From IMG/VR virus record IMGVR_UViG_3300036790_000809, positions 1-24,426 of that record: 24,426 nt of DNA, one strand, 5' to 3'. A program made the translations under genes and the position numbers. Each line of letters begins with the position of its first letter. Position 1 is the first letter of the stretch. The notes below the pieces were generated by a model, which did not search any database, had not been told where the DNA came from, and was given only the letters and a program-made list of their open reading frames with translations. Below, piece by piece: positions 7,263 to 24,319 of this stretch. The DNA comes from a virus.

Positions 7263-8144
7263 CTAGCCCTTGGCGCGGCCGGCGACGATGCCGGCCAGCT
7301 TGGCGTGGTAGCGCCAGATCATGTGGTCGCCGACGCTGGAGAGGCGGTGCGTGAACGGCCAGGCCAGCAGTGAGGCGAGGTCGACGACAAAGCGCGGGAC
7401 GAGGTCGCGGTCGCGGCGCAGCGCCTCGGTGGGCGCGGGCCCGCGCAGCAGCCGCGGATCGCCGGTGTGGCGATAGCCGCCCACCCCGAACAGGCTCGGC
7501 GTCGCCGGCGGCACGCCCGGGACCAGGTCCCAGTTGTCCACCACGCGGTAGTGCGGCGCCTTGACCTGCTCGTCGAAGTCGACGGTGGCCACCCGCGGCG
7601 AGCCGAAGGTGTAGCAGGCGGCCAGGTTGTCGCGCTCGAGCGCCGCCGTGGCGATCTGCGCCAGCGCGCCGCCGAGCGAATGGCCGGTGACGTAGAAGCC
7701 GAGCCCCGCCGGCGCGTAGAAGTCGACGGCGCGGGCGATCTCGGGGCCCAGCCTGGCGTAGGCGTCCCAGAAGCCGCGATGCACGCGGATCCGCGGCCGC
7801 CCGGGCATGGGAATCAGCTCGGCGTCCAGGTTGATCGCCCAGTCGGCCGCCTCGGCCGTGCCGCGGAAGGCCAGCACCGCCAGCTGCCCGGGCGCGAAGG
7901 CCAGGAAGGCGCGCACGCCGCCAATGTCCCATTCGCCGACCAGGTGCAGGCCGCCGGCGGTGAGCCGCAGCTCCAGCTCGGCCGGCGAGCGGTAGGCGTA
8001 GTCGGCCATCGCCGCCATCAGCAGCGCCGTGCGCACCGACCAGGCGGCCCGCCATGTAGGCGCGAGGGCGACGTCGGCCGGCGTGATCGCCGGCGCGTCG
8101 GGGACCGCCGAGGAGGCGCGCGCCAGGGGCGACAGCGTGGTCAC
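7263..8144 (-). CDS. Class 3 lipase family protein (alpha/beta hydrolase)
   Basis: A 293-residue protein beginning at GTG 8144, which overlaps the glycosyltransferase stop (GTGA). It shows the Lipase_3 layout: FRGT at 93-96 (oxyanion region), GHSLGGA at 154-160 with nucleophile Ser156, Asp206 in NWDLVPGVPP, and His274 in GDHMIWRYH. The catalytic triad therefore appears intact, and an active esterase or lipase is expected. No signal peptide is visible. It is co-transcribed with the glycosyltransferase and lies beside the lysis and tail genes, so possible roles are attack on host envelope lipids, help with lysis, or lysogenic conversion; none is shown by sequence. The same frame is open further upstream but overlaps the glycosyltransferase gene. 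Confidence 0.9.
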   Translation of the reverse strand: MTTLSPLARASSAVPDAPAITPADVALAPTWRAAWSVRTALLMAAMADYAYRSPAELELRLTAGGLHLVGEWDIGGVRAFLAFAPGQLAVLAFRGTAEAADWAINLDAELIPMPGRPRIRVHRGFWDAYARLGPEIARAVDFYAPAGLGFYVTGHSLGGALAQIATAALERDNLAACYTFGSPRVATVDFDEQVKAPHYRVVDNWDLVPGVPPATPSLFGVGGYRHTGDPRLLRGPAPTEALRRDRDLVPRFVVDLASLLAWPFTHRLSSVGDHMIWRYHAKLAGIVAGRAKG

Positions 8145-9256
8145 GCCGCAGGCCGCTGCAGGAATTCGAGCCAGGTCTCCCGGGCGATGGCGCAGAAGCG
8201 CTTCAGGCCGTGCAGGCTGGGATCGAACCGCCGGTTGGCGTGACGGCCCAGCCAGGCGCGGTGCATGGCGTCCGCCATCGAGGCCGGGTCGGTCGGGTCG
8301 GCGCGCGACGCCGGCGTGCTCCACGCCACCTCGGCCGAGGTGACCAGCGGCACGCCCTGGCTGACCGCGTCGGCGGCGACGATGCAGAAGGTCTCGGCGA
8401 AGGACACCTGCGCCACCAGGTCCATGCTGGCCACCAGGTCCAGGAACTCGGCGTGCGGCATCCAGTCGTGGCGGACCAGCTCGGCGTAGGGGTTGGCCTC
8501 GAAGATCCACTCCAGGTTCTTCACCGTCGGGCCGCCGCCGCACTCGATGCGGTCGCCGTTGATGTGGAAGCGCAGCCGCCGGCCGACGCGCTCGGCGAAC
8601 AGCATCGCCGCCAGCGCCTGGCCGACCATGTTCTTGAACGGCCGCGCGGCGCCGAAGCAGCCGACGTCGACGTGCAGGCCGTCATCCTCCGCCGGCGGCG
8701 GCAGCGCGTGGCGCTCGGGGTAGTAGTTGGGCAGCCATGGCACCCGGGCGTCGGCGGCCGCGCCGAACAGCTTGCGCGCCAGCAACCGCAGCTCGGCGAC
8801 GTGGCGCTGGTCGTTGGGCGCCACCACGGCGCCCGGCTTGCCCAGGTACTCCAGCGCCCACTTGAAGCCATAGGTGTCGTGGGCCAGGAACGGCGTCGAG
8901 GAGTGGCCGCGGACGATGAACTGCACGTCCGGGAACAGCGGCCTCAGGTCGTCGAGCTTCTTCGGCCGGCACCAGAAGGCCTCGAGCACGACGTGCGTCG
9001 GCCGGTAGGCCTCGATCTCCTTCCAGATGTCGTTGTCCGACTTGACGTGGACCAGGCGGGCGTCGATCCCCGCCTCGTTCAGCATCGCGACGACGAAGCC
9101 GGCCGAGTTGGAGAGCCCGTGGCTCAGCGGCTCCGTGGTGATCGGATCGTCGCCGGCGAGCTGGGAGGCGCCCCAGGTCCCCATGCCGTAGGCGGGCGCC
9201 TTGCGCCAAAGCAGGACGAACAGGACGCGCGGGGTCGGCCGCTGCGCATGGAACAT
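8141..9256 (-). CDS. Glycosyltransferase, GT-B fold (GT4-like)
   Basis: A 371-residue protein with the C-terminal half of a GT-B enzyme. GCFGAARPFKN (about 200-209) corresponds to the phosphate-binding turn after the interdomain linker, and SFAETFCIVAADAVSQGVPL (285-304) to the E-x7-E-like sugar-nucleotide motif, with Glu288 kept and the second position replaced by Asp296 or neighbours. The N-terminal half has Rossmann-type strands (RVLFVLLWR, THVVLEAFW, VQFIVRGHSS). It would transfer a sugar to a protein, lipid or DNA acceptor; the acceptor cannot be read from sequence. Start is ATG 9256 with a weak GAG upstream. A phage glycosyltransferase near tail and lysis genes suggests virion decoration or surface modification of the lysogen. 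Confidence 0.85.
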   Translation of the reverse strand: MFHAQRPTPRVLFVLLWRKAPAYGMGTWGASQLAGDDPITTEPLSHGLSNSAGFVVAMLNEAGIDARLVHVKSDNDIWKEIEAYRPTHVVLEAFWCRPKKLDDLRPLFPDVQFIVRGHSSTPFLAHDTYGFKWALEYLGKPGAVVAPNDQRHVAELRLLARKLFGAAADARVPWLPNYYPERHALPPPAEDDGLHVDVGCFGAARPFKNMVGQALAAMLFAERVGRRLRFHINGDRIECGGGPTVKNLEWIFEANPYAELVRHDWMPHAEFLDLVASMDLVAQVSFAETFCIVAADAVSQGVPLVTSAEVAWSTPASRADPTDPASMADAMHRAWLGRHANRRFDPSLHGLKRFCAIARETWLEFLQRPAA

Positions 9257-9430: not shown

Positions 9431-9991
9431 CTAGCAGGCCTCGGCCGCCACGCGCGCGGCGTCGGCCTGCAGCTGGCTCACCTGGGTCTGCAGCGCGCCC
9501 GCGAGCGAGGCGCCGGTGGAGGCCTGCTGCACGGTGTTGGCGTCGGTCACCGCGGTCAGCACCAGCGGCAGCAGGGCGATCAGCGTGGAGCTGGTCGACG
9601 CCCCGGCCACGGGGGCGGCCGCGGCCGCCGCCGGCGGCGCAGCGTCGAGCAGGCCCTGCATCTGCGGCAGGGTGGCGGCGATCGTCGCCAGCTCGGCGTT
9701 GGCGTCGGCGGCGTTGCCGGCGCTGTAAGCGGCCGTCAGCCCGATCGCCGCGGCCGCGGCCTTGGGCACGTCGGTCTCGAAGGCGACGCAGCGGGCGCCG
9801 GTGACCACCTTGCCGCTGGCATGCAGCGTCTCGCCGGCGTCGATCAGCCCGTCGATCGTCATGTCGACGCCGAGCACGATCTGGCCCTCGGTGATCGGAT
9901 TGACGCCCAGCTTGGCGGCGGAGCCGGCGCAGCCGGCGAGGGACGCCACGCACGCCAAGGCGCACGCGGCCGCGAGGAAGCGGTGTCGCAT
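9431..9991 (-). CDS. Putative phage lipoprotein (186 aa)
   Basis: Starts at ATG 9991, six bases after GGAGA. The N-terminus MRHRFLAAACALACVASLAG with Cys21 is a lipoprotein signal peptide (lipobox LAGC, 18-21). The mature part is Ala-rich, with a helical segment and a second hydrophobic stretch (STLIALLPLVLTAVTDAN, about 133-150), then a helical C-terminus ending in Cys. Such Ala-rich lipoproteins occur in alphaproteobacterial prophages next to lysozyme-type genes. It follows the endolysin by 26 bases, so a role in lysis or the envelope is likely. Not assigned to a named family. Confidence 0.75.
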   Translation of the reverse strand: MRHRFLAAACALACVASLAGCAGSAAKLGVNPITEGQIVLGVDMTIDGLIDAGETLHASGKVVTGARCVAFETDVPKAAAAAIGLTAAYSAGNAADANAELATIAATLPQMQGLLDAAPPAAAAAAPVAGASTSSTLIALLPLVLTAVTDANTVQQASTGASLAGALQTQVSQLQADAARVAAEAC

Positions 9992-10017
9992 GGGAGGTCT
10001 CCGGAGAATCGGCGCGG

Positions 10018-10515
10018 TCAGTGGACCGTGCCGTCGTGAAAAAACGAATGTTGGAAAATCACCGCGTCGAGCGCCGCCGGCGTCGCCCACGGCGCGCTGG
10101 AGACCTTCGGGTTGAGGTAGAGCACCGTGCGCGGCGTCAGGCCGGCGAAGGCCGGGCCCGGGTTGAACGACAGCGGCCGGCCGGTCGACCAGGCGATGGC
10201 GTCGACCCAGGCGCGGGCGCAGTCGGCCCACGCGGCCTGCCGGGAGAACTCGGCGTGCAGCTGCGCGGCCAGCGTCTCCGCGCCGGCCAGGTCGAACTGC
10301 GTCTGCTTGTAGGCGCCGTGGACCATCTGCGCCCAGAAGCCGGAGAAGGCCCACTTGTGCAGCACCGTCCCCAGCAAGGTGCCGTCGCTCGCGTAGCGCA
10401 GCTTCTGGCGGTTGAGGATCACGCAGCCGACCGCGACCTTGCCCTCGTAGGGCTGGTTGGCGGCCTCGTCGGCGATGCAGGTGACCGCCAACTCGGTGTC
10501 GGTGAGCGCGAACAT
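10018..10515 (-). CDS. Cell wall hydrolase, SleB/Hydrolase_2 type (endolysin)
   Basis: A 165-residue protein with the SleB-type lytic fold signature: ADEAANQPYEGKVAVGCVIL (about 15-34), where Glu17 is the likely catalytic acid, then NRQKLRY, the aromatic WAFSGFW block (55-61) and a C-terminal half with TVLYLNPKVSSAPW. Family members hydrolyse peptidoglycan glycan strands. No signal peptide is seen, so export would need a holin. ATG 10515 has GGAG seven bases upstream. It stands between a single-pass membrane protein and a lipoprotein, making a compact lysis cassette. Phage endolysin is the best call. Confidence 0.88.
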   Translation of the reverse strand: MFALTDTELAVTCIADEAANQPYEGKVAVGCVILNRQKLRYASDGTLLGTVLHKWAFSGFWAQMVHGAYKQTQFDLAGAETLAAQLHAEFSRQAAWADCARAWVDAIAWSTGRPLSFNPGPAFAGLTPRTVLYLNPKVSSAPWATPAALDAVIFQHSFFHDGTVH

Positions 10516-11499: not shown

Positions 11500-14478
11500 T
11501 CAGATCCAGCCGGCGGTGAGGATCACCTGGCCGCCGCCGCCGTTCGCGCCGGCCGAGAGGCCGCCGGCGCCCGCCGCGCCGCCGCCCGGGAAGGTGCCGG
11601 CCGCGCCTTGGGTGGTCTGGTCGCCAGAGCCGTTGCCGGCCCCGCCGCCATCCCAGACGTTGGTGAGGCCGCCGTCGCGGCCTGCGGACTCGGCGGCCGT
11701 GCCGGTCGTGCCCGAGCCGCCAACACCCTCGGCCCCGGCCGCGCCCGTGCCGCCGTGAGCGACCGTGGCGTTGGGCGAGGAGGAGGTGGTGTCGCCGCCG
11801 TCGGTGGCCGGGGTCGAGCCGTTCTCGGCGACGCCGCCGGCGCCGACGACGCCGGCGATCGTCGTCGTGCCGGGGACGATGGTCAGGTGCTCCTTGACGT
11901 ACTCGCCGCCGCCGCCGCCCGCGCCGGGCGCTGGGCTGGAGCCCTTGCTGACCGTGCCGAAGTCGGACCCGCCGCCACCGCCCCAGCTCTCGCGGGTGAT
12001 CTGCGTCGGCCAGGTCGAGGCCGAGGTGATGCTGTAGGCCCCGGGCGCCGTGTAGGCGTGCAGCAGCGTGCCCGAGCTGATCGTGTTGGAGACGGTGAGC
12101 GAGTAGCTGAAGCTGGCCGTGGTCAGCACGTTGGCGCCGCTGTCGGTGGCGTTGGCCACCGTCACCACGCCGGTGTTGGTCCCCACGGTGGTGTGGCTGA
12201 AGGTCAGCTGCAGGGTGTCGCCGTTGTTGACGGCGATCCCGGCCCCCGACGTCGTCGCGGTCAGGGCCCCGCCGTTCAGCGAGTATTTGCAGGTGGCCGT
12301 GCCGGTCCAGCTCGGCACCCAGCTGACCGGCTCGTTGCAGCCGCTGACCGTCCACACCGACGTCGAGACGCTGGTGGGGTTGCCGTTCGAGGCGCTGATG
12401 TTCGCCTGCGCCACCTGGGTGGTGGTCGGGTCGGCCGAGCCGCCGGAGCCGACGAAGGTGCCGGCCGTCACCGAGGCGATCACCAGCTCGTCGCCGGCGA
12501 TGCCGCGCACCAGGTAGCGCAGGCGCACGTCGTAGACCTGGCCGGACGCCAGCTGCATCTCCACCCGCGTGGCGGCCGGCGCCGGCGGCGAGTCGTAGTG
12601 GGTCCAGGCCGTCGTGCCGTGTATCCGGTACTCGACGATCAGGTTGGTGGCGTTGGGGTTCTCCATCGAGCCGGTGACGACGATCGCCGGGACGGAGACG
12701 CCGTTGGCGGTCAGCGTCGTACCGACCGCGCTCCAGGGCGGCGAACCCGGCGCAGCCGACACCAGGTCGATGCCGGTGAGCGGCGGCGGGTTGATCAGCG
12801 CGCCGGTGCGGCCCAGCGCCGCCGCGTGCTTGGCCGTGGTCTCCGAGCGCAGCGTCAGTTGCGGGATGCCGGTGCTGGGATCGATCTTGCGGTTGGTGAT
12901 CAGGCAGAGCTGGCTGGAAAGCCCCCACTCGTCCTCGTCCAGGGTGATCGCGTCGCCGGGCTGCAGCCCCATCCACTGCGGCTTGGCCGGCAGGCTGATC
13001 GGGCCGAACTCGCGCGAGTCGTAGATGGCGTAGGCGGCGAGCTGGCTGACCTGGTCGACGTCCTGGACCAGCGGCCAGTCGAGGCCCTTGGTGCGCTTGC
13101 CGCCGTCGCCGGCGAAGAAGCCCGAGACCTCGACCGCGGCCGCCGGCGCCAGCTGCCAGCCCAGGCTCTCCTCGCGGTAGGAGGGGACCACCCGGTTGAT
13201 GCGGTCGGCGCGCTTGACCGTCGCCTGGATGCTGGCCGGGCCGACGGCGTCCGCGCCGGTGAGGGTGGCGATCGAGGTGCGCGGCGCGTTGACCAGGCAG
13301 CTGATCTTCGCGCCCAGCGGAATCGGCATGCCGCCGCCCGCCTGCAGCATGGCCCCCAGCGCGTCCCAGCGGCTGTCGCCGGCGGTGACGACGCCGCCGG
13401 CCTTCCAGCCGTTGGCGTCGGCGACGTTGGCGCCCTCGACGTAGGCCGGCAGGTCGATGGCGTCGGCCGGCGCGCCGACGCCCAGCACCTTCACGCCGTT
13501 GTTCTTGTGGCCGATCAGCCAGGTGAGGCCCTGGAGGAACGGGTTCTCCGAGTAGGCCCAGGTGGTCGGCTGATTCCAGCGCTGGGGCCCGGAGCCGCCC
13601 GGGTAGGTCGAATCCTGCCGCGGGTCGTAGACCGACGGCCCCTCGACGATCCACAGCGGCTTCGGCGTGCCGGCGGCGAAGGCGTCGGACTTGTAGAGCA
13701 GCTGCCAGTGGACGGCCGCCAGGCCGGAGAGCTTGTGGGCGCTGGTCCACTCCGGGAAGTGATCGATGACCGGCAGCGCCACGTCGGGCTGCGCGCCCAG
13801 CGTGTAGGCCTGGAACATCTGGCCGACCCAGGGGTGGCCGTCGTCGAGGGTGGTGGCGGCCCAGTAGGTCGGGTTCGGCGGCGCGATGTTGAGGTTGGCC
13901 TTGACGCAGATGTAGTCGGAGCCGGAGAAGCTGACGCCGTCGTTGTACTGGTACTGGGTGGTGTTCGACCAAGCGCCGCGGAAGTTGAGGCCGACCGAGG
14001 TGGCGGCGTAGTTCGGCGTCGGCGAGAAGGTCACCGGGACGTTGGAGCCGGTGAACTGGGTGATCGCGTTCACCGGCCCGTGGCTCAGCACCACCTTGTA
14101 GAGCAGGCCGGCGTTGTGGCCCTCGTCCGAGGTGTCCACGAAGACGATGTTGCCGCCGGTGCCGGTTCGGCCGACCACGTAGGGCAGCGGGGCGTTGATG
14201 TCGGCCTTGAACTCGACCGGCGCGCCGGTGTTGATGTGCGGCTGCGGGACCAGCGCCATGGCCACGGCGCCGACCGCCAGCCAGGCCTGCGCCGCCGAGG
14301 CGAGGCCGGCCGCGCCGACCAGGGCGTCGGCGAAGCCGAACACCGCCATGTCGATCGAGATCGTGGCGCTGGTGATGCCGGCGGCCAGCCCGGCCAGGCC
14401 GACCGCCGCGGCCGCCGAGGCCACGGCGGTGCCGACCGCGGTGATCACGGCGGCGATTCCGGCGGCGATGAAGGGCAT
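11500..14478 (-). CDS. J-like phage tail tip/host specificity protein with glycine-rich adhesin end
   Basis: A 992-residue central tail-tip protein. Residues 1-80 are hydrophobic and Ala/Gly-rich. About 90-165 resemble the first hub domain. Residues 167-207 (FRGAWSNTTQYQYNDGVSFS through NPTYW) form a ChiC-like carbohydrate-binding module inserted early. The middle (about 300-560) is the hub/tail region with LQPGDAITLDEDEWGLS. Fibronectin-like strands follow (about 590-670). From about 830 to the end the chain is a glycine-rich region (runs of four to five Gly, then VVGAGG and GGGAAGAGG) like the polyglycine adhesin of phage tail fibres. It closes the tail module in the order tape measure, distal tail, hub, K/I-like, J. 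Receptor binding is inferred. Confidence 0.88.
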   Translation of the reverse strand: MPFIAAGIAAVITAVGTAVASAAAAVGLAGLAAGITSATISIDMAVFGFADALVGAAGLASAAQAWLAVGAVAMALVPQPHINTGAPVEFKADINAPLPYVVGRTGTGGNIVFVDTSDEGHNAGLLYKVVLSHGPVNAITQFTGSNVPVTFSPTPNYAATSVGLNFRGAWSNTTQYQYNDGVSFSGSDYICVKANLNIAPPNPTYWAATTLDDGHPWVGQMFQAYTLGAQPDVALPVIDHFPEWTSAHKLSGLAAVHWQLLYKSDAFAAGTPKPLWIVEGPSVYDPRQDSTYPGGSGPQRWNQPTTWAYSENPFLQGLTWLIGHKNNGVKVLGVGAPADAIDLPAYVEGANVADANGWKAGGVVTAGDSRWDALGAMLQAGGGMPIPLGAKISCLVNAPRTSIATLTGADAVGPASIQATVKRADRINRVVPSYREESLGWQLAPAAAVEVSGFFAGDGGKRTKGLDWPLVQDVDQVSQLAAYAIYDSREFGPISLPAKPQWMGLQPGDAITLDEDEWGLSSQLCLITNRKIDPSTGIPQLTLRSETTAKHAAALGRTGALINPPPLTGIDLVSAAPGSPPWSAVGTTLTANGVSVPAIVVTGSMENPNATNLIVEYRIHGTTAWTHYDSPPAPAATRVEMQLASGQVYDVRLRYLVRGIAGDELVIASVTAGTFVGSGGSADPTTTQVAQANISASNGNPTSVSTSVWTVSGCNEPVSWVPSWTGTATCKYSLNGGALTATTSGAGIAVNNGDTLQLTFSHTTVGTNTGVVTVANATDSGANVLTTASFSYSLTVSNTISSGTLLHAYTAPGAYSITSASTWPTQITRESWGGGGGSDFGTVSKGSSPAPGAGGGGGEYVKEHLTIVPGTTTIAGVVGAGGVAENGSTPATDGGDTTSSSPNATVAHGGTGAAGAEGVGGSGTTGTAAESAGRDGGLTNVWDGGGAGNGSGDQTTQGAAGTFPGGGAAGAGGLSAGANGGGGQVILTAGWI

Positions 14479-14484: not shown

Positions 14485-14946
14485 TCAGGCGGTCCGCGGG
14501 TCGCAGCGCCAGGCCACGGCGGCGACGCCGGCCTTGGCGAGCGTGCGGTGGCCGTCGATGACGTGGCAGCGGCCGCCGTCCTCCTCGACGAACGCCAGCA
14601 CCCGGCCGTTGCCGACCGCGACGCCGAGCGCGGCCATCTCCATGCTGGGGTGGCTGTAGGCGATGACGTCGCCCATCAGCGCCGCCGCCGGCGCGATGCG
14701 GGGACAGCGCATCGAGTCCATCGCCTCCAGGGTGGTGTCAAAGCCGGCCCGCTTCAGCGCCCTGAGCGCGCCCCGGGCGGACGTGTAGTAGCCGCCGCGC
14801 GCCAGCGCCGGCTTGTAGCCGAGCTGCTTCAGGTTGAAGGCCGCGAGGCGGATGCAGTCGCGCTTGCCCCAGTCGAACAGCGTGTTGTTGAAGACGTCGA
14901 TGGTGGCCTGCGCGGCGTCGCGGCGCAGGTGCAGCAGGCTGGTCAT
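14485..14946 (-). CDS. DUF6950-like tail assembly protein, NlpC/P60-related position
   Basis: A 153-residue protein from ATG 14946, overlapping the upstream stop (ATGA). The N-terminal FDWGKRDCIRLAAFNLKQLG (24-43) places a Cys at 31 at the start of a helix, as in NlpC/P60-like folds, and a later block GDVIAYSHPSMEMAALGVAV fits the following strands. However, the usual catalytic His before GV is replaced by AL, so activity is doubtful. This matches my memory of the DUF6950 family, which occupies the lambda K position before J-like proteins. Role: tail tip assembly, possibly a degenerate peptidase. Confidence 0.72.
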   Translation of the reverse strand: MTSLLHLRRDAAQATIDVFNNTLFDWGKRDCIRLAAFNLKQLGYKPALARGGYYTSARGALRALKRAGFDTTLEAMDSMRCPRIAPAAALMGDVIAYSHPSMEMAALGVAVGNGRVLAFVEEDGGRCHVIDGHRTLAKAGVAAVAWRCDPRTA

Positions 14947-15677
14947 GCGCGCAGCACCGCGCCGGCGAGCAGGTTGACGGCCGCCGACACCGGGTTGCCG
15001 GGCGCCTGCGGGCGGGTGGGAAAGCCGCCGGTGGAGACGCCGGACGACGCGCCGTGGCTGTTCAGCACGTCGCGGATCAGCACCGGGCGCGGGCTGTCGG
15101 CGCCCCACGGCATCACCTGCTGGACGTCGACGACGAACTGCAGGCCGAGCTCGCCGGGCCAGAGCGCCTGGTGGTCGGAATTGGACAGCAGGTTGCCGTC
15201 CGGCGAGTCGAGGAAGGGCCCGAACGGGCTCTCCGCGTCGATCTTCACCAGCCGGCTCGACTTGTCGGCCACCAGCGTCGGCGCGTCGAGGTAGCCGTAC
15301 CAGACCAGGTATGGCGAGCCGACGACGAGGCCGGTGACGCTGTCGGCGGCCCAGTACCAGCACTTGATCACCGAGCCCTGCGCGGTCGGATCGCACAGCG
15401 CGGCCGCGGCGGCGTTGGTCGGCGCCTGGATGCCGAACAGCAGGCTAGGCGCCTGGTCGGAGATGCCGTCGGCGAAGGCTTCCGGCAGCACCAGCGCGCC
15501 GTAGGTGGCGTCGAGGCCGACGAAGGTGTCGCCGTTCAGCTCCAGGAAACCGGCGCCGTCGAGCAGCCGCACGGTGAAGGTCGGATAGGCGATCTCGACG
15601 GCGAAGCCGTGCAGCGGCGAATCCGCCTGCAGGGCCGCCTGCATGGTCGGATCGAGGTGGCCGCCAGCGCCCGGCAT
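14943..15677 (-). CDS. Phage tail hub-type protein (lambda L/GTA hub position)
   Basis: A 244-residue protein with GGAGG five bases before ATG 15677. It is beta-rich, with segments such as FAVEIAYPTFTVRLLDGAGF and the aspartate- and glycine-containing LNGDTFVGLDATYGAL. It ends in a Pro/Gly-rich linker. It lies between the distal tail-type protein and the DUF6950-like protein and overlaps the latter by four bases. By gene order it corresponds to the tail-tip or baseplate hub protein of lambda-like phages and gene transfer agents. Family assignment is by position and general character only. Confidence 0.7.
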   Translation of the reverse strand: MPGAGGHLDPTMQAALQADSPLHGFAVEIAYPTFTVRLLDGAGFLELNGDTFVGLDATYGALVLPEAFADGISDQAPSLLFGIQAPTNAAAAALCDPTAQGSVIKCWYWAADSVTGLVVGSPYLVWYGYLDAPTLVADKSSRLVKIDAESPFGPFLDSPDGNLLSNSDHQALWPGELGLQFVVDVQQVMPWGADSPRPVLIRDVLNSHGASSGVSTGGFPTRPQAPGNPVSAAVNLLAGAVLRA

Positions 15678-15816: not shown

Positions 15817-16407
15817 TCAGGCGACTTCCTGGATCGTGAACTTCATCGAGTCCCAGATCAGCCGCGTGCGGGTCCACTCCTCGGTCGTGCCGGAGAGGAA
15901 GCCCTCGATCTGCGGGGTGTTGAACTGCAGCGCCGCGCCGTTGGCCGGGCTCTCGCGCAGCATCGGGGCGATCTGCAGCAGGCTGGCGCCGGCGACGGCG
16001 GTGACCTGCTGGGTGACCATGTGCAGGTAGTTGCGGCCGGACGGCCCGACGAACGAGAAGAAGGTCCCGCCTGGCGGCAGGGCCGAGCCCCAGCCGTGCG
16101 ACTGCAGCGTCGAGCCGGCCTGGCCGGCGCCCTGCACGGTCGGCGCGCCCCAGGCGCCGGCCTGCTGCGGCCAGGTGGCGACCAGGGTCGAGCCCAGCAC
16201 CCGGGCGTCCATGCGCGCCGCGATCCACTGCGCCGCCAGCGTCGCCGTGCGCATGTCGGGCATGACGAAGTCGCAGGCGAAGCGCGAGCCGAGGCGGCGG
16301 AAGCGCTGCTGCGCCCCGCCCAGCGGCGGGGTCATGTCGCCGCCGAAGTCGAGGAAGCGCGGCGTCGCGGTCCACGGCGCCGGATTGGTCGGCAGGGCGA
16401 CGGCCAT
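15817..16407 (-). CDS. Phage distal tail/minor tail protein (lambda M or Dit-like position)
   Basis: A 196-residue protein whose ATG overlaps the stop of the tape measure gene (TGATG). It has a beta-rich central section with GSRFACDFVMPDMRTATLAA and GTFFSFVGPSGRNYLHMVTQ, and ends LIWDSMKFTIQEVA. Similar proteins follow the tape measure gene in alphaproteobacterial siphophages and in gene transfer agents. No catalytic motif. The specific family is not recognised; the structural role is inferred from order and composition. Confidence 0.72.
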   Translation of the reverse strand: MAVALPTNPAPWTATPRFLDFGGDMTPPLGGAQQRFRRLGSRFACDFVMPDMRTATLAAQWIAARMDARVLGSTLVATWPQQAGAWGAPTVQGAGQAGSTLQSHGWGSALPPGGTFFSFVGPSGRNYLHMVTQQVTAVAGASLLQIAPMLRESPANGAALQFNTPQIEGFLSGTTEEWTRTRLIWDSMKFTIQEVA

Positions 16408-18929
16408 CAGTGCATCGCGAAGGCGGCGCGCCTGGCCTGCTCGGCCGGGATCACCTGGCGCATGCCGGCGACCGAGGCGGCCGAGTAGTGCATCGCCTGC
16501 TGCTGCGCCTGGCGCGAGGCGATGACGTTCATCTGCTGCAGCAGGTCGTCGGTCATCACCGCCCCGCGCAGGTCGAAGTAGCTCCCGCCCCCGCCGCCGG
16601 CGGCCATGCCCGGCTGCACCGACACGCTGCGGATGGCGCTGTTGGGGATGATCTTCGCGCCGGCCGGCACGTCCATCAGCTCGGGGCCGTTCTCGCCGAT
16701 GACGGAGAGGCCGCCGGGCGCGGACGGCGTGCCGCCGGCGAAGTGGGCGAGGCCGGCGATCGCCTGGGCGATGCCGACGCCGGCCGACATGGGGCTGCCG
16801 GCGCCGAGGCCGGCGCTGGCCACGCCCGACGGGCCGGGGATCAGGTTCAGCATCTGCGCCAACGGCAGCGTCAGGTACTTCTCGATCCCGAGGCTGAGCA
16901 GCTGCTGGCCGATGTTGCGGAGCACGTCGCCGAGGCTCTCGCCGAGGTTCTTGGAGTTGGTGATCGCCTCGACGAGGGCCTGATTGACGCCCTTCAGACC
17001 CTGCACCATGAGGTTGCCGGCCTGGTCGTTGAAGCCGGCGCCGGTGTCGGTCTGAAGCTGGCGGATGTAGGCGTCCAGCGGGCTGGCGGTGGAGTTCTCC
17101 ACGGCCTGCTGCCGCAGCGGCCGGGTCTGGTGCAGGCTGTCGAGCTGCGAGCGCGCGTCCCTCACCTGGTCGGGCGTCGACGACTTCAGCGCGATGATCT
17201 CGTTGAGCTTGGCCTCTTCGATCTGGTCGTCGAGATCGAGGATCCGCAGCTCGAGCTGCCGGCGTTGCTGGCTGGTGGTGGCCAGCCCCTTCTGGGCTTC
17301 GGCCAGCGCTACCTGGTCCTGCAGGTCGCGCTGCTTCGAGGTCGACGTGCGCGTGGTGGCGGCGTCGGTTGCGACCCGGTCGTCCAGCTGGTGCTGCAGC
17401 TGGTCGCGGATGCCCTCCGCGAACTTGGCAGAGCGCATGTCGGCAAGCGCCTTGTCGTGCGCCGCCTGGGTGATCTTGCCCTGCTGAAGCTGCAGGTCGA
17501 GCTCTGCCTTGCGGCGCGCCTCGGCCGCGTCGCGCGCCTGGCGATCGGTGTCGGCGATCGCGTCCTGGATCAGCTTGCGCTGCTGCAGGTCGCTGGTGAG
17601 CGCCAGCTGCGCCTGCAGGCCGGCCTTGATCGCGTCGTCGAGCTCCTGGGCGCCCTGGGCGACGGCGTCGTCGCTGTTCTTCTTGATCTCCTCCGGCGTC
17701 GGGCCACGAGGCTTATGGCTGGCTGGCGGAAGGTCGTTCAGCGAGCCCGTGGGCTTGTCCGCGTGATCGCGCTCGTTGGCGAACTGCTGGTTGCGCGTGT
17801 TGGCCTGGATATCGCCCGCGGCGCCGAACTCCTGGCCGGCCATCTTGTCCTGGCGCTGCGCCATGAACTCGGCGGACTTCGGATTGAGCACCTCGGCCAG
17901 CGTGCCGCCGGCGGCCATGATCTTGAGCGGATCACCCGACCGCAGCGCCGCGGCCCGTGCCTGGTAGTGGAAGGCGTTCGACATGTGCTGCCCCCACTTC
18001 TCGGCGTCGTTGCCGAAGGGGTGCTCGAACAGGTCGGCGATGTAGTTGGCGGCGTCGGCGGCGGCGTTCTTCAGCGCCACGAGGGCCGGCACCATGTCGG
18101 CGCCGATGCGCTCGGAAGCCGCCTTCATGCGGATGTCGGCCTGGTGCGTCTCGTCGGCGAGATTGGCCATCTCCGCGACGGTCTTGCCGCCGACGACCGC
18201 GCCCATGGTCTCGGCCTCGGTCGCCATGCCGCGGATGGCGTCGCCGCCCTTCTTCAGCAGCGGCAGCAGCTCTTCGAGCCCGAGCGCCTTGGCCACGGCC
18301 GACTGCTCGGCCGATGTCTTCAGCTGGCGGATGCGGTCGGCGATGACCGGCAGCAGCTCGGAGGCGTTCTGGTAGGTCTTCAGGTCCGTCGGCGTGATGT
18401 CGAGGATCTTGAAGGCCTTGGCCTGGGTGTTGTTGAGCCCGCGCGCCAGGTTGCCCTGGACCTTGCCCATCACCTCGTTGAGGCTCTCCAGCCCGGCGCG
18501 CATCGCCTCGATCGGCACGCCCGCGCCGGCGGCGACGTAGTCCATCTCCTGCAGCGCCGTGGTGGTGACGCCGATCTTCTGGGCAGCGCCGACCAACTGG
18601 TCGGCCCACTCGGCGGCCTTGGCGCCGAGATCGAGCGCGGCGCCGACGGCGGCGATCGCGGCCGCGGCCGCCAGGCCGTAGGGTCCCAGGCCTTGCAGCG
18701 CCCCGCCCAGCGCGCCGAGCTTGGCGGTCGCCTGTCCCATGACGCCATTGGCGGCCTGGAGCGACGCGGTGTTGAGCGCCTTGCCGAGGTCGAGCTGGCC
18801 GAAGCGCTTTTCCCAGCTGTCAACCGCGCCGTGGACAGTGCGGTTTACACCGTTGACCTTGTCGGTGAGCTTCTGGATGTCCGCGTCGAACTGAACGACC
18901 AGGCGCTCAAGGACGGAGCCGTCGGCCAT
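16407..18929 (-). CDS. Tail tape measure protein
   Basis: An 840-residue protein, the longest after the tip protein in the tail block, with GGAG seven bases before ATG 18929. It opens with long helices (DADIQKLTDKVNGVNRTVHG), then an Ala/Gly hydrophobic stretch (about 75-105). A conserved central helical domain with LGLEELLPLLKKGGDAIRGM follows, then a long Gln/Lys/Glu coiled-coil region (about 400-620). The end is typical: NLGESLGDVLRNIGQQLLSL, then VIGENGPELMDVPAGAKIIP. It sets tail length and is ejected during infection. In most relatives it directly follows the tail chaperone; here two exported-protein genes intervene. Confidence 0.93.
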   Translation of the reverse strand: MADGSVLERLVVQFDADIQKLTDKVNGVNRTVHGAVDSWEKRFGQLDLGKALNTASLQAANGVMGQATAKLGALGGALQGLGPYGLAAAAAIAAVGAALDLGAKAAEWADQLVGAAQKIGVTTTALQEMDYVAAGAGVPIEAMRAGLESLNEVMGKVQGNLARGLNNTQAKAFKILDITPTDLKTYQNASELLPVIADRIRQLKTSAEQSAVAKALGLEELLPLLKKGGDAIRGMATEAETMGAVVGGKTVAEMANLADETHQADIRMKAASERIGADMVPALVALKNAAADAANYIADLFEHPFGNDAEKWGQHMSNAFHYQARAAALRSGDPLKIMAAGGTLAEVLNPKSAEFMAQRQDKMAGQEFGAAGDIQANTRNQQFANERDHADKPTGSLNDLPPASHKPRGPTPEEIKKNSDDAVAQGAQELDDAIKAGLQAQLALTSDLQQRKLIQDAIADTDRQARDAAEARRKAELDLQLQQGKITQAAHDKALADMRSAKFAEGIRDQLQHQLDDRVATDAATTRTSTSKQRDLQDQVALAEAQKGLATTSQQRRQLELRILDLDDQIEEAKLNEIIALKSSTPDQVRDARSQLDSLHQTRPLRQQAVENSTASPLDAYIRQLQTDTGAGFNDQAGNLMVQGLKGVNQALVEAITNSKNLGESLGDVLRNIGQQLLSLGIEKYLTLPLAQMLNLIPGPSGVASAGLGAGSPMSAGVGIAQAIAGLAHFAGGTPSAPGGLSVIGENGPELMDVPAGAKIIPNSAIRSVSVQPGMAAGGGGGSYFDLRGAVMTDDLLQQMNVIASRQAQQQAMHYSAASVAGMRQVIPAEQARRAAFAMH

Positions 18930-18985: not shown

Positions 18986-19363
18986 TTAGGGATGCAGAGG
19001 CTCGCCGCGCTTCAGCGCGTCGCGCTGGGCGGCGTACAGCTCGCGGAAGTGGACCTCAGGCGGGCAGGCCAGCGTCGCCGACCAGGTGCCGCCGAGCCTC
19101 GACATGGGATGGACGTCGCTGACCGTGCAACCGATCGGCCGCACGAAGTACTCGACGGCGTGTCGCCAGACGTTTTCGGGCCAGTTGGCCGGCGCGTCGG
19201 TGAAGCTGAGCTTCGGACGCGGCTGGATCATCAGCTTGTCGCCGGACCCCTTGTGCAAATAGAACCAGAAGACGCGCCCGTCGTCGGACTTCACGACCAC
19301 GGGCGAAAAGTCGAAGTCGAACCCGGAGTCGGCCAACGCCTTGCCGGCGCAGAGCGCGGCCAC
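18986..19363 (-). CDS. Putative secreted protein with poorly defined start
   Basis: From GTG 19363 the product has 125 residues, beginning MAALCAGKALADSG, which is only the end of a signal peptide. Reading upstream in the same frame gives RRPIAALALVAALCAGKALA, a complete signal peptide, but before the in-frame stop there is no ATG, GTG or TTG. The real start may be ATA at 19381, which overlaps the previous gene's TAG (ATAG), or a CTG. The mature part (DFDFSPVVVKSDDGRVFWF and PIGCTVSDVHP) has a Cys pair and reads as a small periplasmic or secreted domain. It is paired with the lipoprotein gene upstream. Not recognised. Confidence 0.65.
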   Translation of the reverse strand: MAALCAGKALADSGFDFDFSPVVVKSDDGRVFWFYLHKGSGDKLMIQPRPKLSFTDAPANWPENVWRHAVEYFVRPIGCTVSDVHPMSRLGGTWSATLACPPEVHFRELYAAQRDALKRGEPLHP

Positions 19364-19377
19364 CAGGGCCAGCGCGG

Positions 19378-19824
19378 CTATTGGGCGGCGAGGTATTTCA
19401 GCACCTCATGCGCGTCGTAGAGGCCGTCCGGCATCGGATCGGGCCGCGGCCCCTTCATCATCTTGATCGTCAGGCTCTCGCCCGGCCTGACGATCGGCAT
19501 GGTGTAGCCGGTGCCGAAGACGGAGTAACGGCCGCCGATGGCCGAGCCGAACGTCGTCTCGCCACTGCGGGTTCGATCCGTCGTCTCGACGATCCGGAAG
19601 AGGTCGAAGCCGTCGTCGATGGTCTCTTCTGCGGCGCGCCTCAAGGCGTACCGCTGGACGGTGTCGGGGTCGGTGTAGGCGTTGCCGGCGGCCGTGACCT
19701 GGGCGGTGTCCGCCGTTATGCGGTAAGCCCGGACGCCGCCGTTCGGGCCCAGCGCCGTGTAGGGTGTCTCGCATGCGCCGAGCAGGAGCAGCGCGGAAAT
19801 CGGGATGATGGCGGCGCAACGCAT
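19378..19824 (-). CDS. CC0125/CC1285-like lipoprotein
   Basis: From ATG 19824 the product has 148 residues: signal MRCAAIIPISALLLLGAC with lipobox LGAC and acylated Cys18. The mature part begins ETPYTALGPNGGVRAYRI and continues with AGNAYTDPDTVQRYALRRAA and a following aromatic DGFDLFRIVE, the pattern I associate with the CC0125/CC1285 family of Caulobacter chromosomal lipoproteins. Function of the family is unknown. In-frame starts at 19860 and 19875 would add a charged leader before the signal and are less likely. No clear Shine-Dalgarno precedes it. Its place between the tail chaperone and tape measure genes marks it as cargo (a moron), not a tail part. Confidence 0.82.
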   Translation of the reverse strand: MRCAAIIPISALLLLGACETPYTALGPNGGVRAYRITADTAQVTAAGNAYTDPDTVQRYALRRAAEETIDDGFDLFRIVETTDRTRSGETTFGSAIGGRYSVFGTGYTMPIVRPGESLTIKMMKGPRPDPMPDGLYDAHEVLKYLAAQ

Positions 19825-19881: not shown

Positions 19882-20082
19882 CTACATCACCCCGATCTGC
19901 ATCGCCCGGGCGACATTGCGCTCGTGCTCGTCGGCCGACGGCGCGCGCGGGCCGCTTTCGACGCAGTTGGCCCGCCGCCAGCCGCGCCAGGCGCAGATGA
20001 ACTGCCAGAGGCTTGCCCGGTCGACCTGGTCGGCCGACCAGCCCATCACCGCGCCGGCGGCGTAGAGGTTGGCCCAGCGGGT
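19882..20082 (-). CDS. Tail assembly chaperone T extension, expressed by -1 frameshift
   Basis: This frame lacks any usable start before its conserved part and overlaps the 3' end of the G-like gene in the -1 frame. Its 66 residues, TRWANLYAAGAVMGWSADQV onward to QIGVM, have the Trp-rich helical look of small chaperone partners in gene transfer agents and lambda-like phages. Slipping back one base on the AAA codon at 20084-20082 joins 156 residues of G to these 66, giving a 222-residue GT fusion. G and GT of lambda bind the tail tube and tape measure during assembly; the same role is inferred here. An independent GTG/ATG start at 20049/20046 is possible but would cut into the conserved part. 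Confidence 0.7.
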   Translation of the reverse strand, partial: TRWANLYAAGAVMGWSADQVDRASLWQFICAWRGWRRANCVESGPRAPSADEHERNVARAMQIGVM

Positions 20083-20549
20083 TTTGCCGCGCGGGAGCGG
20101 CGCTTCGTCTTCGGGGCCGCCGGCGCCCCAGTCGTCTCCCCCAGCGGCTCGTCCTCCGGGCCGAGCAGCGAAGCCATCAGGATCTGGAAGGCGGTCACCG
20201 CACTCTGCATCGGCGGCTGCTGGTCGACGAACTCCCGCACCAGGACGGTGGCGATCGACGAATCGAGCCCGGCGCCGAGCAACCCCCTGAAGATCGTCTC
20301 CCGGTAGTCGTCGGTTCGCCAGGCACCAAGGTTGCCGCTCACCGCCGCGCCGATCAGCAACTGCGCGCGGTCGGCCGGATTCTGGCTGACCGAGAGCTGC
20401 GCCAGCCGCATCATCGGCGCCAGGCGCTGCACCAGCACCGGCAGGCCGGCGTCGCACTTCTCCTCGATGGCGCGGCGCTCGCCGAGCCCGAGCCGGAAGA
20501 CGCGGTCCTCGCCGGCGAACGGCAGGGTGATCTCGCCGAAGCGGCTCAC
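20046..20549 (-). CDS. Tail assembly chaperone G-like (gene transfer agent family protein)
   Basis: A 167-residue protein starting at GTG 20549, which shares one base with the tail tube gene's TAG. The N-terminal beta unit FGEITLPFAGEDRVFRLGLG and the following helix ERRAIEEKCDAGLPVLVQRL match the GTA-type tail chaperone family. The middle is helical (FRGLLGAGLDSSIATVLVRE) and the end is Lys/Pro-rich (PKTKRRSRAAKPAGP), typical of the linker before a frameshift. It lies between the tail tube and, after the inserted cargo, the tape measure. Confidence 0.82.
   Translation of the reverse strand: MSRFGEITLPFAGEDRVFRLGLGERRAIEEKCDAGLPVLVQRLAPMMRLAQLSVSQNPADRAQLLIGAAVSGNLGAWRTDDYRETIFRGLLGAGLDSSIATVLVREFVDQQPPMQSAVTAFQILMASLLGPEDEPLGETTGAPAAPKTKRRSRAAKPAGPTSTPPAR
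20079..20087 (-). promoter_or_regulatory. Probable -1 ribosomal frameshift site (GCA AAA CCC)
   Basis: On the minus strand the zero-frame codons are GCA AAA CCC. The four-A run lets the Lys tRNA move back one base and still pair perfectly, after which ACC CGC TGG begins the T frame. Zero-frame translation continues only 11 more codons. It is not a canonical X-XXY-YYZ heptamer, so efficiency is uncertain. Confidence 0.55.
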
Positions 20550-21013
20550 TAGGCGTTCGCCGCGATCGAGGTCGGGGCGTCGGCCTGGCTGAACTTGCCG
20601 GTGAAGGTGGCCTTGTCGCGCGCCGCGCCGGTGATGGCGAAGCTCTCGCAGACCAGCGGCACCGAGATGGTGAAGCCGCCGTTCGCCCCGGAGAGGTTGA
20701 AGACGATCTTGCAGTTGCGCTGCGGGTTCACGCCCTGGCTCCACTGCAACATGTTCAGGCTGGACGGGCCGTCGGCGGTGCCGGCGCCGTCGAACGACAG
20801 GTCGGTCGACTGGATGGCGCGGACGGTCTTGGCGGCGGCCGACGGGTTGGTGTCGTCCGCCACGTCGGTGGAGGAGAACTTTGCCGAGCCGGTGAAGCCG
20901 CGCGTGGTGTTGATGCTGGCGCTGTGGCTGAAGACTTCGGGCGTCGCGCCGTTGCCGATCAGCAGGATGATCTGCTCGCCAGCAACGGGCAGGACGAAGG
21001 TGTCGCCGGACAT
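20549..21013 (-). CDS. Major tail protein (tail tube)
   Basis: A 154-residue protein with a strong GAGGAG before ATG 21013. It begins MSGDTFVLPVAGEQIILLIG, and the block VFSHSASINTTRGFTGSAKF followed by SLNMLQWSQGVNPQRNCKIV and a C-terminal FTGKFSQADAPTSIAANA is the layout of TP901-1/GTA-type tail tube proteins. These proteins stack as hexamers to form the tube. Position directly before the chaperone gene confirms the role. The strong ribosome binding site fits high expression. Confidence 0.88.
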   Translation of the reverse strand: MSGDTFVLPVAGEQIILLIGNGATPEVFSHSASINTTRGFTGSAKFSSTDVADDTNPSAAAKTVRAIQSTDLSFDGAGTADGPSSLNMLQWSQGVNPQRNCKIVFNLSGANGGFTISVPLVCESFAITGAARDKATFTGKFSQADAPTSIAANA

Positions 21014-21076: not shown

Positions 21077-21556
21077 TCAGGCCTGCAGAGCGGCGGGCGA
21101 GACCAGGTAGACGAAGGTGAGGACGCCGCGGCGGGTGACGCCGTCGGGCTCCTTGCGGGGCGGCGGGCTGCCGTGCAGCCGCCAGGTGATGGTGTTGAAG
21201 CCGGCGATCTGCAGCGGCTGGTCGAGGGCGATGCGGGCGGCGTTCAGCAGCGTCTTCAGCTCGGCGTAGCTGACCGGCTGGGTCGGCCGGCTCCAGGCCT
21301 TCACGTCGACGAAACACTCGTCGGTGATGCCCGGCGTGTCGGGGACGATCTGGTCCTCGCCGATGGTGAAATACGGAAAGAGGGCGGTCGGCACCTTCTG
21401 GTTCTGGTCGACCGGCGCGGTGTCGTAGACGCGCGGCACGTCGGCGGCGTTGGCCGCCAGGGCCTGGAAGGCGGCGATCGTCGCCGGGTGGGTGGTCAGC
21501 GCCTCGTGCACGGCCGCCTGCAGCGCCAGCGACGGGTCGAGCGGGGCGTAGGCCAT
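21077..21556 (-). CDS. DUF3168 tail completion protein
   Basis: A 159-residue protein. DUF3168 hallmarks are the N-terminal helix SLALQAAVHEALTTHP, VPRVYDTAPVDQ, FPYFTIGEDQIVPD and the WSRPTQPVSYAELKTLLNAA helix, ending in a beta strand with GVLTFVYLV. These proteins cap or join the tail to the head, like gp17 of SPP1 and the GTA g8 product. ATG 21556 is one base after the preceding stop, so it is translationally coupled. The position between HK97 gp10 and tail tube genes is standard. Confidence 0.9.
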   Translation of the reverse strand: MAYAPLDPSLALQAAVHEALTTHPATIAAFQALAANAADVPRVYDTAPVDQNQKVPTALFPYFTIGEDQIVPDTPGITDECFVDVKAWSRPTQPVSYAELKTLLNAARIALDQPLQIAGFNTITWRLHGSPPPRKEPDGVTRRGVLTFVYLVSPAALQA

Positions 21557-21557: not shown

Positions 21558-21977
21558 CTAGCGGGCGCCGCCGATGCAGAGCGCCTTCAGCGCCGCCCTG
21601 ACGGCCGAGGCGCGCCGGCTCTGGAAGCGCCGTTTGTTGATCCGCAGCGTCGGGAACCAGAACGGCTCGCCTTGCACGTGGCGGCCGTTCTTCGCCATGT
21701 GGCCGCCCTCGAGGTGCATCGGATAGGGCGCCTCGGGGCCGCCGATCGACACCGTCACGGCCATCGGGCCGGGCCCGTCCGACTTGGCGAGCGTCTGCAC
21801 CAGGTGCTCGGGGCGCGCGCCTTCGTGGTCTTCCGGCTTCGCCCTCGGGATCCGCGCCTCGACCTGCTGCATGAAGTCGGTGGCGTTGTGATCGTCGGCG
21901 CCCTTGACCGCGGCCTGCACCGAGCCCGGGATTCGCGCCAGCTTCGCGGATAGGGAGTCGAGGCCTTGCGTCGGCAT
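21558..21977 (-). CDS. HK97 gp10 family neck/tail-component protein
   Basis: A 139-residue protein beginning MPTQGLDSLSAKLARIP and containing a block around PYPMHLEGGHMAKNGRHVQG followed by EPFWFPTLRI, which is the HK97 gp10 pattern (a strand, then HLEGG/FWFP). A strong GGAGGGGAGG precedes the ATG. Such proteins act at the neck or in tail completion. Basic C-terminal tail (INKRRFQSRRASAVRAALK). Its neighbours, head closure and DUF3168, match the usual order. Confidence 0.88.
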   Translation of the reverse strand: MPTQGLDSLSAKLARIPGSVQAAVKGADDHNATDFMQQVEARIPRAKPEDHEGARPEHLVQTLAKSDGPGPMAVTVSIGGPEAPYPMHLEGGHMAKNGRHVQGEPFWFPTLRINKRRFQSRRASAVRAALKALCIGGAR

Positions 21978-22786: not shown

Positions 22787-23392
22787 TTAGGTGGACGTGC
22801 CGGCGAGGTAGACCGTGCAGGTCACCGAGCTGCCGGAGCTGGAGTTGGCCAGCTTGATGATGTCGCCGGTGGCGGCGGTCACCGCCCAGCCGGCGGACGA
22901 GCCCTGGCCCTTGGTGATCAGCAAGGTCTCGCCCGGCGAGACCGCGGTCAGCGGCGTGGTGCCCGACCAGGGGCCGGCGAAGGGGTTGGTGGCCCCGGGC
23001 CCGATCTGGCAGTCGTTGGTGTTGCCCGCCGACGCGGCGAGCAGGATGAACTTCACGTGCAGGAAGCTCACGGTGTTGCCGAAGCCGTCGATGGCCGAGC
23101 CGTTGAGGTCGATCGTCGACGTGCTCGAGGCGGCGATCGTCACCTGCACGGCGTAGAAGGTGTCGACCTGGCCGGCGTTGGTGCCCCCGGTGAGGGACAG
23201 CGGGAAGGTGCTGTTGAACACCCGCTTGGAGCTGCCCAGCGCGTCGGTGTTGGTGACGTCGCCCTGCAGGCCGGCGTTCAGGTTCAGGCCCGTGGGCCCG
23301 ACGCCGATGGTGCCGGCGAGCGCGGGCGGCGCGATGGCGGCGCCGGCCAGGATGAAGGCCGCGACGGCCAGGGTCTTCAGGTGGCGGAGCAT
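22787..23392 (-). CDS. Secreted-type protein within the connector genes
   Basis: A 201-residue protein with a clear Sec signal: basic MLRHLK, hydrophobic core TLAVAAFILAGAAI and cleavage after ALA (26/27). The mature part is beta-rich, Gly/Ser/Thr-rich, with two Cys (128 and 192) able to form a disulfide. Its C-terminal AGWAVTAATGDIIKLANSSS to VYLAG recalls phage head-decoration or fibre-type proteins. It starts 26 bases after the connector gene with CGGAGAG upstream. A signal peptide on a phage morphogenesis gene is unexpected, since virion proteins assemble in the cytoplasm. It could be a cargo surface or secreted protein. Family not recognised. Confidence 0.8.
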   Translation of the reverse strand: MLRHLKTLAVAAFILAGAAIAPPALAGTIGVGPTGLNLNAGLQGDVTNTDALGSSKRVFNSTFPLSLTGGTNAGQVDTFYAVQVTIAASSTSTIDLNGSAIDGFGNTVSFLHVKFILLAASAGNTNDCQIGPGATNPFAGPWSGTTPLTAVSPGETLLITKGQGSSAGWAVTAATGDIIKLANSSSGSSVTCTVYLAGTST

Positions 23393-23417: not shown

Positions 23418-24035
23418 TCAGAGCCAGGTGAGGCGGCGGCTGCCGAGCGCGCGCATGGCGTTGTCGGGCAGCGCGTCCGGGGCGGAGGCGTCGCCGCGGT
23501 TCTCGTTGTAGGCGGCGACGGTCAGCATCAGGCCGAGACTGGCGTAGTCGTCCAGGAACGGCCGCAGCGCCGCGCCGACGCCGCAGGTCCAGCCGATCTC
23601 GACGGCGTTGGCGGCGCGCATCGGCTCGGAGCGCGGCCAGGGCTGGCCGCGCCGGCGCACCAGGCGGCCGAAGGTGGAGTGGGTGTCCGCGTAGTAGTCG
23701 GCAGGGTCCCAGACGGTGGCGGCGTCGCTGTCGTCCCAGGTCTTCACGTAGTCGATCGAGACCAGCGGCGGCATGGGGATCTCGACGTGCCGGACCGCGC
23801 GGCCGCCGCCGTCGCGATCGTCGGGCCAGCCGTCGAGGAAGCCGCGGTAGCTGCGCGTGATCAGCGCCCGGCCGAGATAGGTCTCCACGTCCGTGGTGGC
23901 GGCGGCGATCATCGCCGCGAGATCCGCATCGTAGTCGGCGGTCTCGATGCGCAGCCGCGCCTTCACCTCGGCCAGTGTCACCGGATAGGCGGCCGGCGGC
24001 GTCAGCAGCTCGTCGGGGAGCAGCTTGCGGGTCAT
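23418..24035 (-). CDS. Phage head-tail connector protein (gp6-like)
   Basis: A 205-residue protein from ATG 24035, overlapping the upstream stop (ATGA). PVTLAEVKARLRIETADYDA (about 18-37) and the following LAAMIAAATTDVETYLGRAL helices are the signature of gp6-like connector/adaptor proteins, which form a ring under the portal. A central beta part includes IPMPPLVSIDYV, and the C-terminus ends in helices (DDYASLGLMLTVAAYNENRG). GTA g6 is the counterpart. The longer in-frame opening upstream overlaps the neighbouring gene and is rejected. Confidence 0.9.
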   Translation of the reverse strand: MTRKLLPDELLTPPAAYPVTLAEVKARLRIETADYDADLAAMIAAATTDVETYLGRALITRSYRGFLDGWPDDRDGGGRAVRHVEIPMPPLVSIDYVKTWDDSDAATVWDPADYYADTHSTFGRLVRRRGQPWPRSEPMRAANAVEIGWTCGVGAALRPFLDDYASLGLMLTVAAYNENRGDASAPDALPDNAMRALGSRRLTWL

Positions 24036-24319
24036 TTGGGGAAGCCCCGCAACACGATGGTGTCCGCGCCGCGCAGGCCGGCCTCGGTGACTATGCGGTT
24101 GGTCAGCAGGTAGACCTGGCCGAGCTGCAGGCCCGAGACCGTGGTGGTGGTGAGGCTGGCCTGGCTGGAGACCAGGCCGTCGGCGTCGACCGTGGGGCCG
24201 GCCGGCGAGATCGACCAGCTGGAGGTGGCGATCAGGTCCGGATCGAGCAGCCAGCTCGACCAATCGAGGCTGTGGTCCAGCGTGTCGTCTGGGTCCTGCA
24301 GGACCGGCCCTTCGCTCAA
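24032..24319 (-). CDS. Small structural protein, fibre-tail adaptor-like
   Basis: A 95-residue protein beginning at TTG 24319, five bases after GGGGAGG. LDHSLDWSSWLLDPDLIATS (13-32), then SWSISPAGPTVDADG and a strand region VYLLTNRIVTEAGLRGADT, fit a small Ig-like beta domain often annotated as phage fibre-tail adaptor or structural protein. It lies next to the gp6-like connector with an ATGA overlap. Assignment rests on memory of similar phage proteins. Confidence 0.75.
   Translation of the reverse strand: MSEGPVLQDPDDTLDHSLDWSSWLLDPDLIATSSWSISPAGPTVDADGLVSSQASLTTTTVSGLQLGQVYLLTNRIVTEAGLRGADTIVLRGFPK

What the first reader, a model, noticed from the sequence alone, without database searches (positions are those of the whole stretch)
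18986..19824. Lipoprotein plus secreted-protein cargo inserted between tail chaperone and tape measure genes
In lambda-like phages and gene transfer agents the G/GT chaperone gene is followed directly by the tape measure gene. Here two leftward genes for exported proteins intervene: a CC0125/CC1285-like lipoprotein (lipobox LGAC) and a protein with a signal peptide. Neither looks like a tail part. This is a moron-type insertion at an unusual point and could be a two-component envelope module giving the lysogen superinfection exclusion or altered surface. Seen: gene order and signals. Known: the usual G-T-H order. Inferred: the function.
Basis: partly seen in the sequence, partly recalled or inferred. 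Interest (0 to 1): 0.6.

Follow-up and report, generated by a model that had tools for sequence, protein, structure and literature searches.

The report
Envelope-protein cargo beside phage tape-measure gene
A bacterial virus carries two extra genes for proteins exported to the host cell envelope, wedged just in front of its tail-length gene; related viruses repeatedly put unrelated exported or membrane proteins in exactly that spot, as coliphage HK97 does with its known infection-blocking gene, so the pair is probably removable cargo that changes the infected cell's envelope, perhaps to shut out rival phages.

Summary
Between the chaperone genes (GTA-gp10-like 20046-20549; TAC 19882-20046) and the tape measure gene (16407-18929) lies a 953-bp insert with two leftward genes. 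One is a CC0125/CC1285-family lipoprotein (72.4 bits, cut-off 40). The other is an orphan small protein whose full signal peptide needs an ATA start at 19396. Neither has a recognisable homologue in 151 related phage loci, and named relatives lack the pair.

The chaperone-tape measure junction is a recurrent cargo slot. Among phages with this chaperone, 13 of 59 independent genomes have an insert of at least 200 bp there, against 3 of 266 at five other tail junctions (p=2.6e-8). Most inserts encode lipoproteins, secreted or small membrane proteins, on either strand, and cargo is swapped between phages with similar flanks. HK97 gp15, a known superinfection-exclusion moron, sits in the same slot. 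The lipoprotein's nearest relatives lie in prophages or beside integrases.

Best reading: a two-gene envelope moron (about 0.9), most likely excluding superinfecting phages around genome injection (about 0.4; untested). Lysogeny of this phage is not shown: the record is a 24-kb fragment. Membrane and signal calls used simple hydropathy rules.

The parts
19378..19824 (-). CC0125/CC1285-family lipoprotein gene (an upstream in-frame ATG at 19860 is possible)
   Evidence: NF047637 72.4 bits, cut-off 40; lipobox LLLLGAC; best coding frame of six
18986..19396 (-). Orphan small exported protein gene; start ATA 19396-19394 for a full signal peptide, GTG 19363 as first standard start
   Evidence: Open frame and GAGG 7 nt upstream of ATA; best coding frame; no homologue in any search
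19404..19407 (-). GAGG, putative ribosome-binding site of the second gene, inside the lipoprotein gene
   Evidence: Sequence around the ATA codon
20046..20549 (-). GTA-gp10-like chaperone/tail protein, upstream flank of the slot
   Evidence: PF11836 6e-15; phrog_8985 5e-23
19882..20046 (-). TAC, second chaperone gene, start overlapping the gp10 stop; immediate upstream neighbour of the insert
   Evidence: phrog_18467 8e-8; homologues in 16-3 and RHph_X2_26 and most gp10-type loci
16407..18929 (-). Tape measure gene, downstream flank of the slot
   Evidence: PHROG tape measure families, E 3e-16; 30% identity to L064
18930..19881 (-). Whole insert between TAC stop and tape measure start: the cargo slot
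   Evidence: Median gap 7 bp in relatives; insert in 13 of 59 genomes here against 3 of 266 at other junctions

Best explanation
The two genes are a moron cassette lodged in a recurrent cargo slot between the tail chaperone gene and the tape measure gene of siphophages related to this one. Shown by sequence: the pair is an insertion, is specific to this phage among relatives, and sits in a slot that other phages fill with unrelated envelope proteins; its lipoprotein's nearest relatives ride on prophages and integrase-bearing elements. Inferred: the products are exported, the lipoprotein anchored in a membrane facing the periplasm and the second protein free in the periplasm. Inferred with less confidence: in the infected or lysogenic cell they exclude superinfecting phages at the step where an incoming siphophage passes its tape measure protein and DNA through the envelope, as HK97 gp15 and TP-J34 Ltp do. 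Confidence about 0.9 for the cassette, about 0.4 for exclusion; the figure below is for the whole statement.
For: Insertion relative to six named phages and 151 contigs; slot statistics p=2.6e-8 and p=9.5e-5 for envelope-type genes; cargo identities; cargo swaps between siblings; HK97 Gp15 in the same junction and its exclusion role tied to tube and tape measure genes (PMC10883804); an exclusion lipoprotein whose target is the tape measure protein, TP-J34 Ltp; lipoprotein relatives in prophages and beside integrases; lowest G+C in the window for both genes.
Against: No functional evidence. No integrase was recognised in the fragment, so lysogeny is unproven. No sigma-70-type promoter or terminator seen at the insert (promoters of alphaproteobacteria are poorly covered). 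Cargo and tape measure 5' part do not always co-vary (L190/L206). The lipoprotein family is also common in cellular genomes (41 of 385 alphaproteobacteria), which allows other roles. The second gene lacks a standard start giving a full signal peptide.
Confidence: 0.45

Rival explanations
1. Lysogenic-conversion cargo with a host-envelope role unrelated to phage exclusion, for example stress response or surface remodelling. The phage picked up a host CC0125-type lipoprotein gene with a neighbour, and it benefits the host cell directly.
For: The family is widespread on chromosomes and plasmids away from phage genes; slot cargo in relatives is very varied.
Against: The nearest subfamily members are on mobile elements; the bias to envelope proteins at the junction beside the tape measure gene fits a link to phage entry better than a general host benefit.
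Confidence: 0.33
2. The pair has a lytic-cycle or virion role, such as help in lysis or periplasmic passage of the phage's own tape measure protein.
For: Same strand as the tail genes and probably the same late transcript, next to the tape measure gene whose product is thought to enter the periplasm during injection (PMC10883804).
Against: Absent from all relatives; export signals are unusual for virion parts; much slot cargo in relatives lies on the opposite strand; a separate lysis region with a cell-wall hydrolase exists at 10018-10515.
Confidence: 0.12
3. Neutral passengers: the junction merely tolerates insertions, and the genes have no selected role.
For: Some inserts at the junction are not envelope genes (HK97-gp10-like in L101, L135, L199; Rha-like in L089).
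Against: The envelope bias, conserved open frames, and recurrence of the same cargo families in the slot of distant phages.
Confidence: 0.1

Closest known systems
HK97 gp15 moron (superinfection exclusion)
   Same: Small envelope protein gene in the same junction, between the tail chaperone genes and the tape measure gene; absent from related phages.
   Different: Gp15 is one 62-aa protein with a membrane helix; here a lipoprotein plus a secreted protein, with no sequence similarity found; function here untested.
TP-J34 Ltp superinfection-exclusion lipoprotein
   Same: Phage-borne lipoprotein proposed as a moron (PMC3952083).
   Different: Ltp sits in the lysogeny module of a phage of Gram-positive hosts; no shared family with the window protein.
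CC0125/CC1285 family lipoproteins (NF047637)
   Same: Above the curated threshold over nearly the full length.
   Different: Most members found are solitary genes of cellular genomes or plasmids; here the gene sits in a tail module with an orphan partner.
Tab of Pseudomonas phage JBD26
   Same: A moron in a late operon whose defence activity is tied to the invader's tape measure protein (PMC10884400).
   Different: Encoded between the terminase genes; blocks tail assembly, not entry.

Membership tests
CC0125/CC1285 lipoprotein family | Score above the curated NF047637 cut-off over most of the profile | tested here: met
   72.4 bits against 40; profile positions 4-168 of 169
CC0125/CC1285 lipoprotein family | N-terminal lipobox with cysteine | tested here: met
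   MRCAAIIPISALLLLGAC; Cys18 invariant in the alignment
Phage moron | Inserted between two genes that are adjacent in relatives | tested here: met
Phage moron | Base composition different from neighbours | tested here: met
   Weakly: 67.6% G+C, lowest measured; third-position G+C 0.89 against mostly 0.93-0.99
Phage moron | Own promoter and terminator | tested here: inconclusive
   None found by sigma-70 and terminator scan, which does not cover other promoter types; weak hairpin before the tape measure gene, z -1.3
Phage moron | Expressed from the prophage | not testable with these tools
   No expression data; lysogeny unknown
HK97 gp15 exclusion protein | Position between chaperone and tape measure genes | tested here: met
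   Window order compared with NC_002167
HK97 gp15 exclusion protein | Sequence homology to gp15 | tested here: not met
   tblastn of both proteins against 50,697 phage records gives no HK97 match
HK97 gp15 exclusion protein | Blocks DNA injection of related phages | not testable with these tools
   Needs infection assays
Ltp-type exclusion lipoprotein | Lipid-anchored protein | tested here: met
   Lipobox seen and NF047637 matched; anchoring itself inferred
Ltp-type exclusion lipoprotein | Membership in the Ltp sequence family | tested here: not met
   No Pfam family up to E 1
Virion structural protein | Conserved at this place in related phages | tested here: not met
   No homologue in 151 loci or six named relatives
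Virion structural protein | Present in purified particles | not testable with these tools
   Needs mass spectrometry

The most novel reading that the evidence does not exclude
The chaperone-tape measure junction is a general exclusion slot of siphophages: unrelated lipoproteins, secreted and membrane proteins dock there because they control how tape measure proteins and DNA cross the envelope. This window would carry a two-component version, a lipoprotein with a periplasmic partner.
Probability: 0.25. Interest if true: 0.75.

Novelty: new variant of a known kind. Interest (0 to 1): 0.52.

Why it matters
If the slot rule holds, position alone would flag many unknown small envelope proteins in phage genomes as candidate superinfection-exclusion or lysogenic-conversion factors; most match no curated family. 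It would turn the single HK97 observation into a testable rule, and sibling phages that differ in cargo behind similar flanks offer natural swap experiments.

Tried and rejected
Homologues of the second protein were sought in viral and genome contigs, phages, plasmids, PDB and 385 alphaproteobacterial genomes: nothing credible. The four weak genome matches (E 6e-4 to 8e-3) are short, three contain stops, and all were judged chance. Fold search of both models against PDB gave no match below E 0.02 (the model of the second protein rests on one sequence). Considered a cargo/tape-measure allele linkage because L132/L134 diverge in the 5' part of the tape measure gene; dropped as a rule because L190/L206 keep a 95% identical 5' part despite different cargo. 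Considered a lambda GT-type frameshift: the window's TAC has its own start overlapping the gp10 stop, so none is needed. No paper names CC0125 in the library; searches for a described chaperone-tape measure hotspot found none, but the library is partial. PADLOC gave no defence match for either protein.

Full report
What is there. The window is a complete 24,426-bp IMG/VR record, linear and likely a fragment. Its right half is a leftward siphophage tail module: head-tail adaptor 23418-24041, HK97-gp10-like 21558-21977, tail terminator 21077-21556, tail tube 20549-21013, GTA-gp10-like 20046-20549, TAC 19882-20046, tape measure 16407-18929, distal tail 15817-16407, tail protein 14943-15677, a 153-aa phrog_2134 protein 14485-14946, and a fibre/J-like protein 11500-14478 (the HK97-gp10-like label is from sequence and position only). 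Between TAC and tape measure lie 953 bp with two genes.

The lipoprotein (19378-19824) passes the curated NF047637 threshold and has no Pfam or PHROG match of note. Its closest homologues are a Neorhizobium plasmid gene next to an integrase (L003, 37-38% identity), a Pseudorhizobium gene among prophage genes including a terminase and an internal virion protein (L023), Acinetobacter prophage genes beside an integrase (L009-L016) and a relative of L023 in a virus contig that also holds a terminase-like gene and host groEL (L215; those two genes recognised by eye). More distant members are spread over cellular genomes. So the subfamily behaves as mobile cargo while the wider family is also chromosomal.

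The second gene (18986-19396) is coding by codon usage but an orphan in every search made. Its only standard start (GTG 19363) truncates the signal peptide. An ATA codon at 19396-19394 with GAGG 7 nt upstream restores MPRRPIAALALVAALCAGKALA|DSG. Whether ATA is used, or is an assembly error for a standard start, cannot be decided here. A single-sequence model gives a small alpha/beta fold (pLDDT 71) with no significant PDB match.

Is it an insertion? In Caulobacter phage Kronos, Rhizobium phages 16-3 and RHph_X2_26, Nostoc phage Nsp-JY10, phage 438212 and Bradyrhizobium phage ppBeUSDA76-1 the corresponding genes adjoin without the pair. Two IMG/VR scans, one with a J alignment (80 loci) and one with a gp10 alignment (71 loci), gave relatives down to about 30% identity. 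None carries a recognisable homologue of either gene. The closest chaperone relative (L144, 53%) shows no gap. The closest tail relative (L064, fibre 51%) has a different single gene there, for a secreted protein.

The slot. In the gp10-type set, the TAC-tape measure gap is at least 200 bp in 13 of 59 independent genomes (median 7 bp overall), while five other tail junctions show 3 of 266 (Fisher p=2.6e-8). About 10 of those 13 inserts encode lipoproteins, secreted or small membrane proteins, often on the opposite strand; three hold an HK97-gp10-like gene. In the J set, a gene with a signal peptide, lipobox or strong membrane segment occupies the position just before the tape measure gene in 11 of 63 independent loci, against 20 of 549 at nine other positions (p=9.5e-5). 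Cargo families recur in the slot of distant phages: the L064 secreted protein and one in L106 (33% identity), and a VCG-motif lipoprotein family in L182, L185/L186, L188, L190 and, as a membrane zinc-ribbon-like variant, L109. Sibling phages swap cargo: L080/L106 are 89% identical upstream and at the start of the tape measure gene but 25% in the 300 bp before it; L132/L134 and L190/L206 also differ in cargo. Microcystis phage Mae-JY28, which shares the tape measure C-terminal part with the window, has two reverse genes there, one lipoprotein-like and one membrane zinc-ribbon protein.

Precedent and mechanism. HK97 Gp15, annotated as a moron product, lies in the same junction. [quoted passage not shown] TP-J34 Ltp is an exclusion lipoprotein overcome by changes in a tape measure protein. 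SNIPE, a membrane-bound defence nuclease, associates with tape measure proteins during injection (PMC13190303). By analogy the window pair most likely interferes with incoming phages in the envelope. That step is inferred. Two points weaken it: no consistent coupling of cargo with tape measure alleles, and no evidence that this phage is temperate.

Limits. Membrane and signal calls in relatives use my own hydropathy and motif rules, and gene calls there come from a simple codon-based method. Relatives were chosen by similarity to two tail genes and are partly fragments. Fisher tests treat de-duplicated loci as independent, and the thresholds were set after a first look at the data. Literature access was limited to open-licence papers; HK97 gp15 was read through citing papers, not the original.

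Noticed in passing
window 22787-23392 (-): A phrog_22694 protein between head-tail genes begins with a clear signal-peptide-like stretch; the homologue in L088 does too, while those in L064, L057 and L058 do not.
   Followed up: partly
L132, L134, L139 near 5100-6400: Sibling phages with swapped slot cargo also differ in the first ~800 bp of the tape measure gene (71-73% against 92% downstream); L190/L206 do not show this.
   Followed up: partly
L064 3484-3861 and L106 4989-5405: Related secreted proteins (33% identity) sit just before the tape measure gene in two distantly related phages.
   Followed up: partly
L182, L185, L186, L188, L190, L109 at the slot: A lipoprotein family with a VCGxVNAKNxFGG motif recurs at the slot; L109 replaces the lipobox with a zinc-ribbon-like stretch and a membrane helix. 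No Pfam match for L186, L188, L190.
   Followed up: partly
window 298-840 (+) and 2972-4822 (+): The virus carries a GapR-like DNA-binding protein (PF10073, 9e-28) and a DnaG-type primase (phrog_6444, 6e-146).
   Followed up: no
window ~9431-9994 (-): A second lipoprotein-like gene (lipobox SLAGC) next to a cell-wall hydrolase gene, possibly part of the lysis region.
   Followed up: no
window 6107-7024 (-) and 8141-9256 (-): A D12-class adenine methyltransferase and a weakly matched glycosyltransferase in the phage record.
   Followed up: no
L016 8992-9480; L002 7953-8441: CC0125-like lipoprotein directly after an integrase gene in Acinetobacter prophages, at the element's edge.
   Followed up: partly
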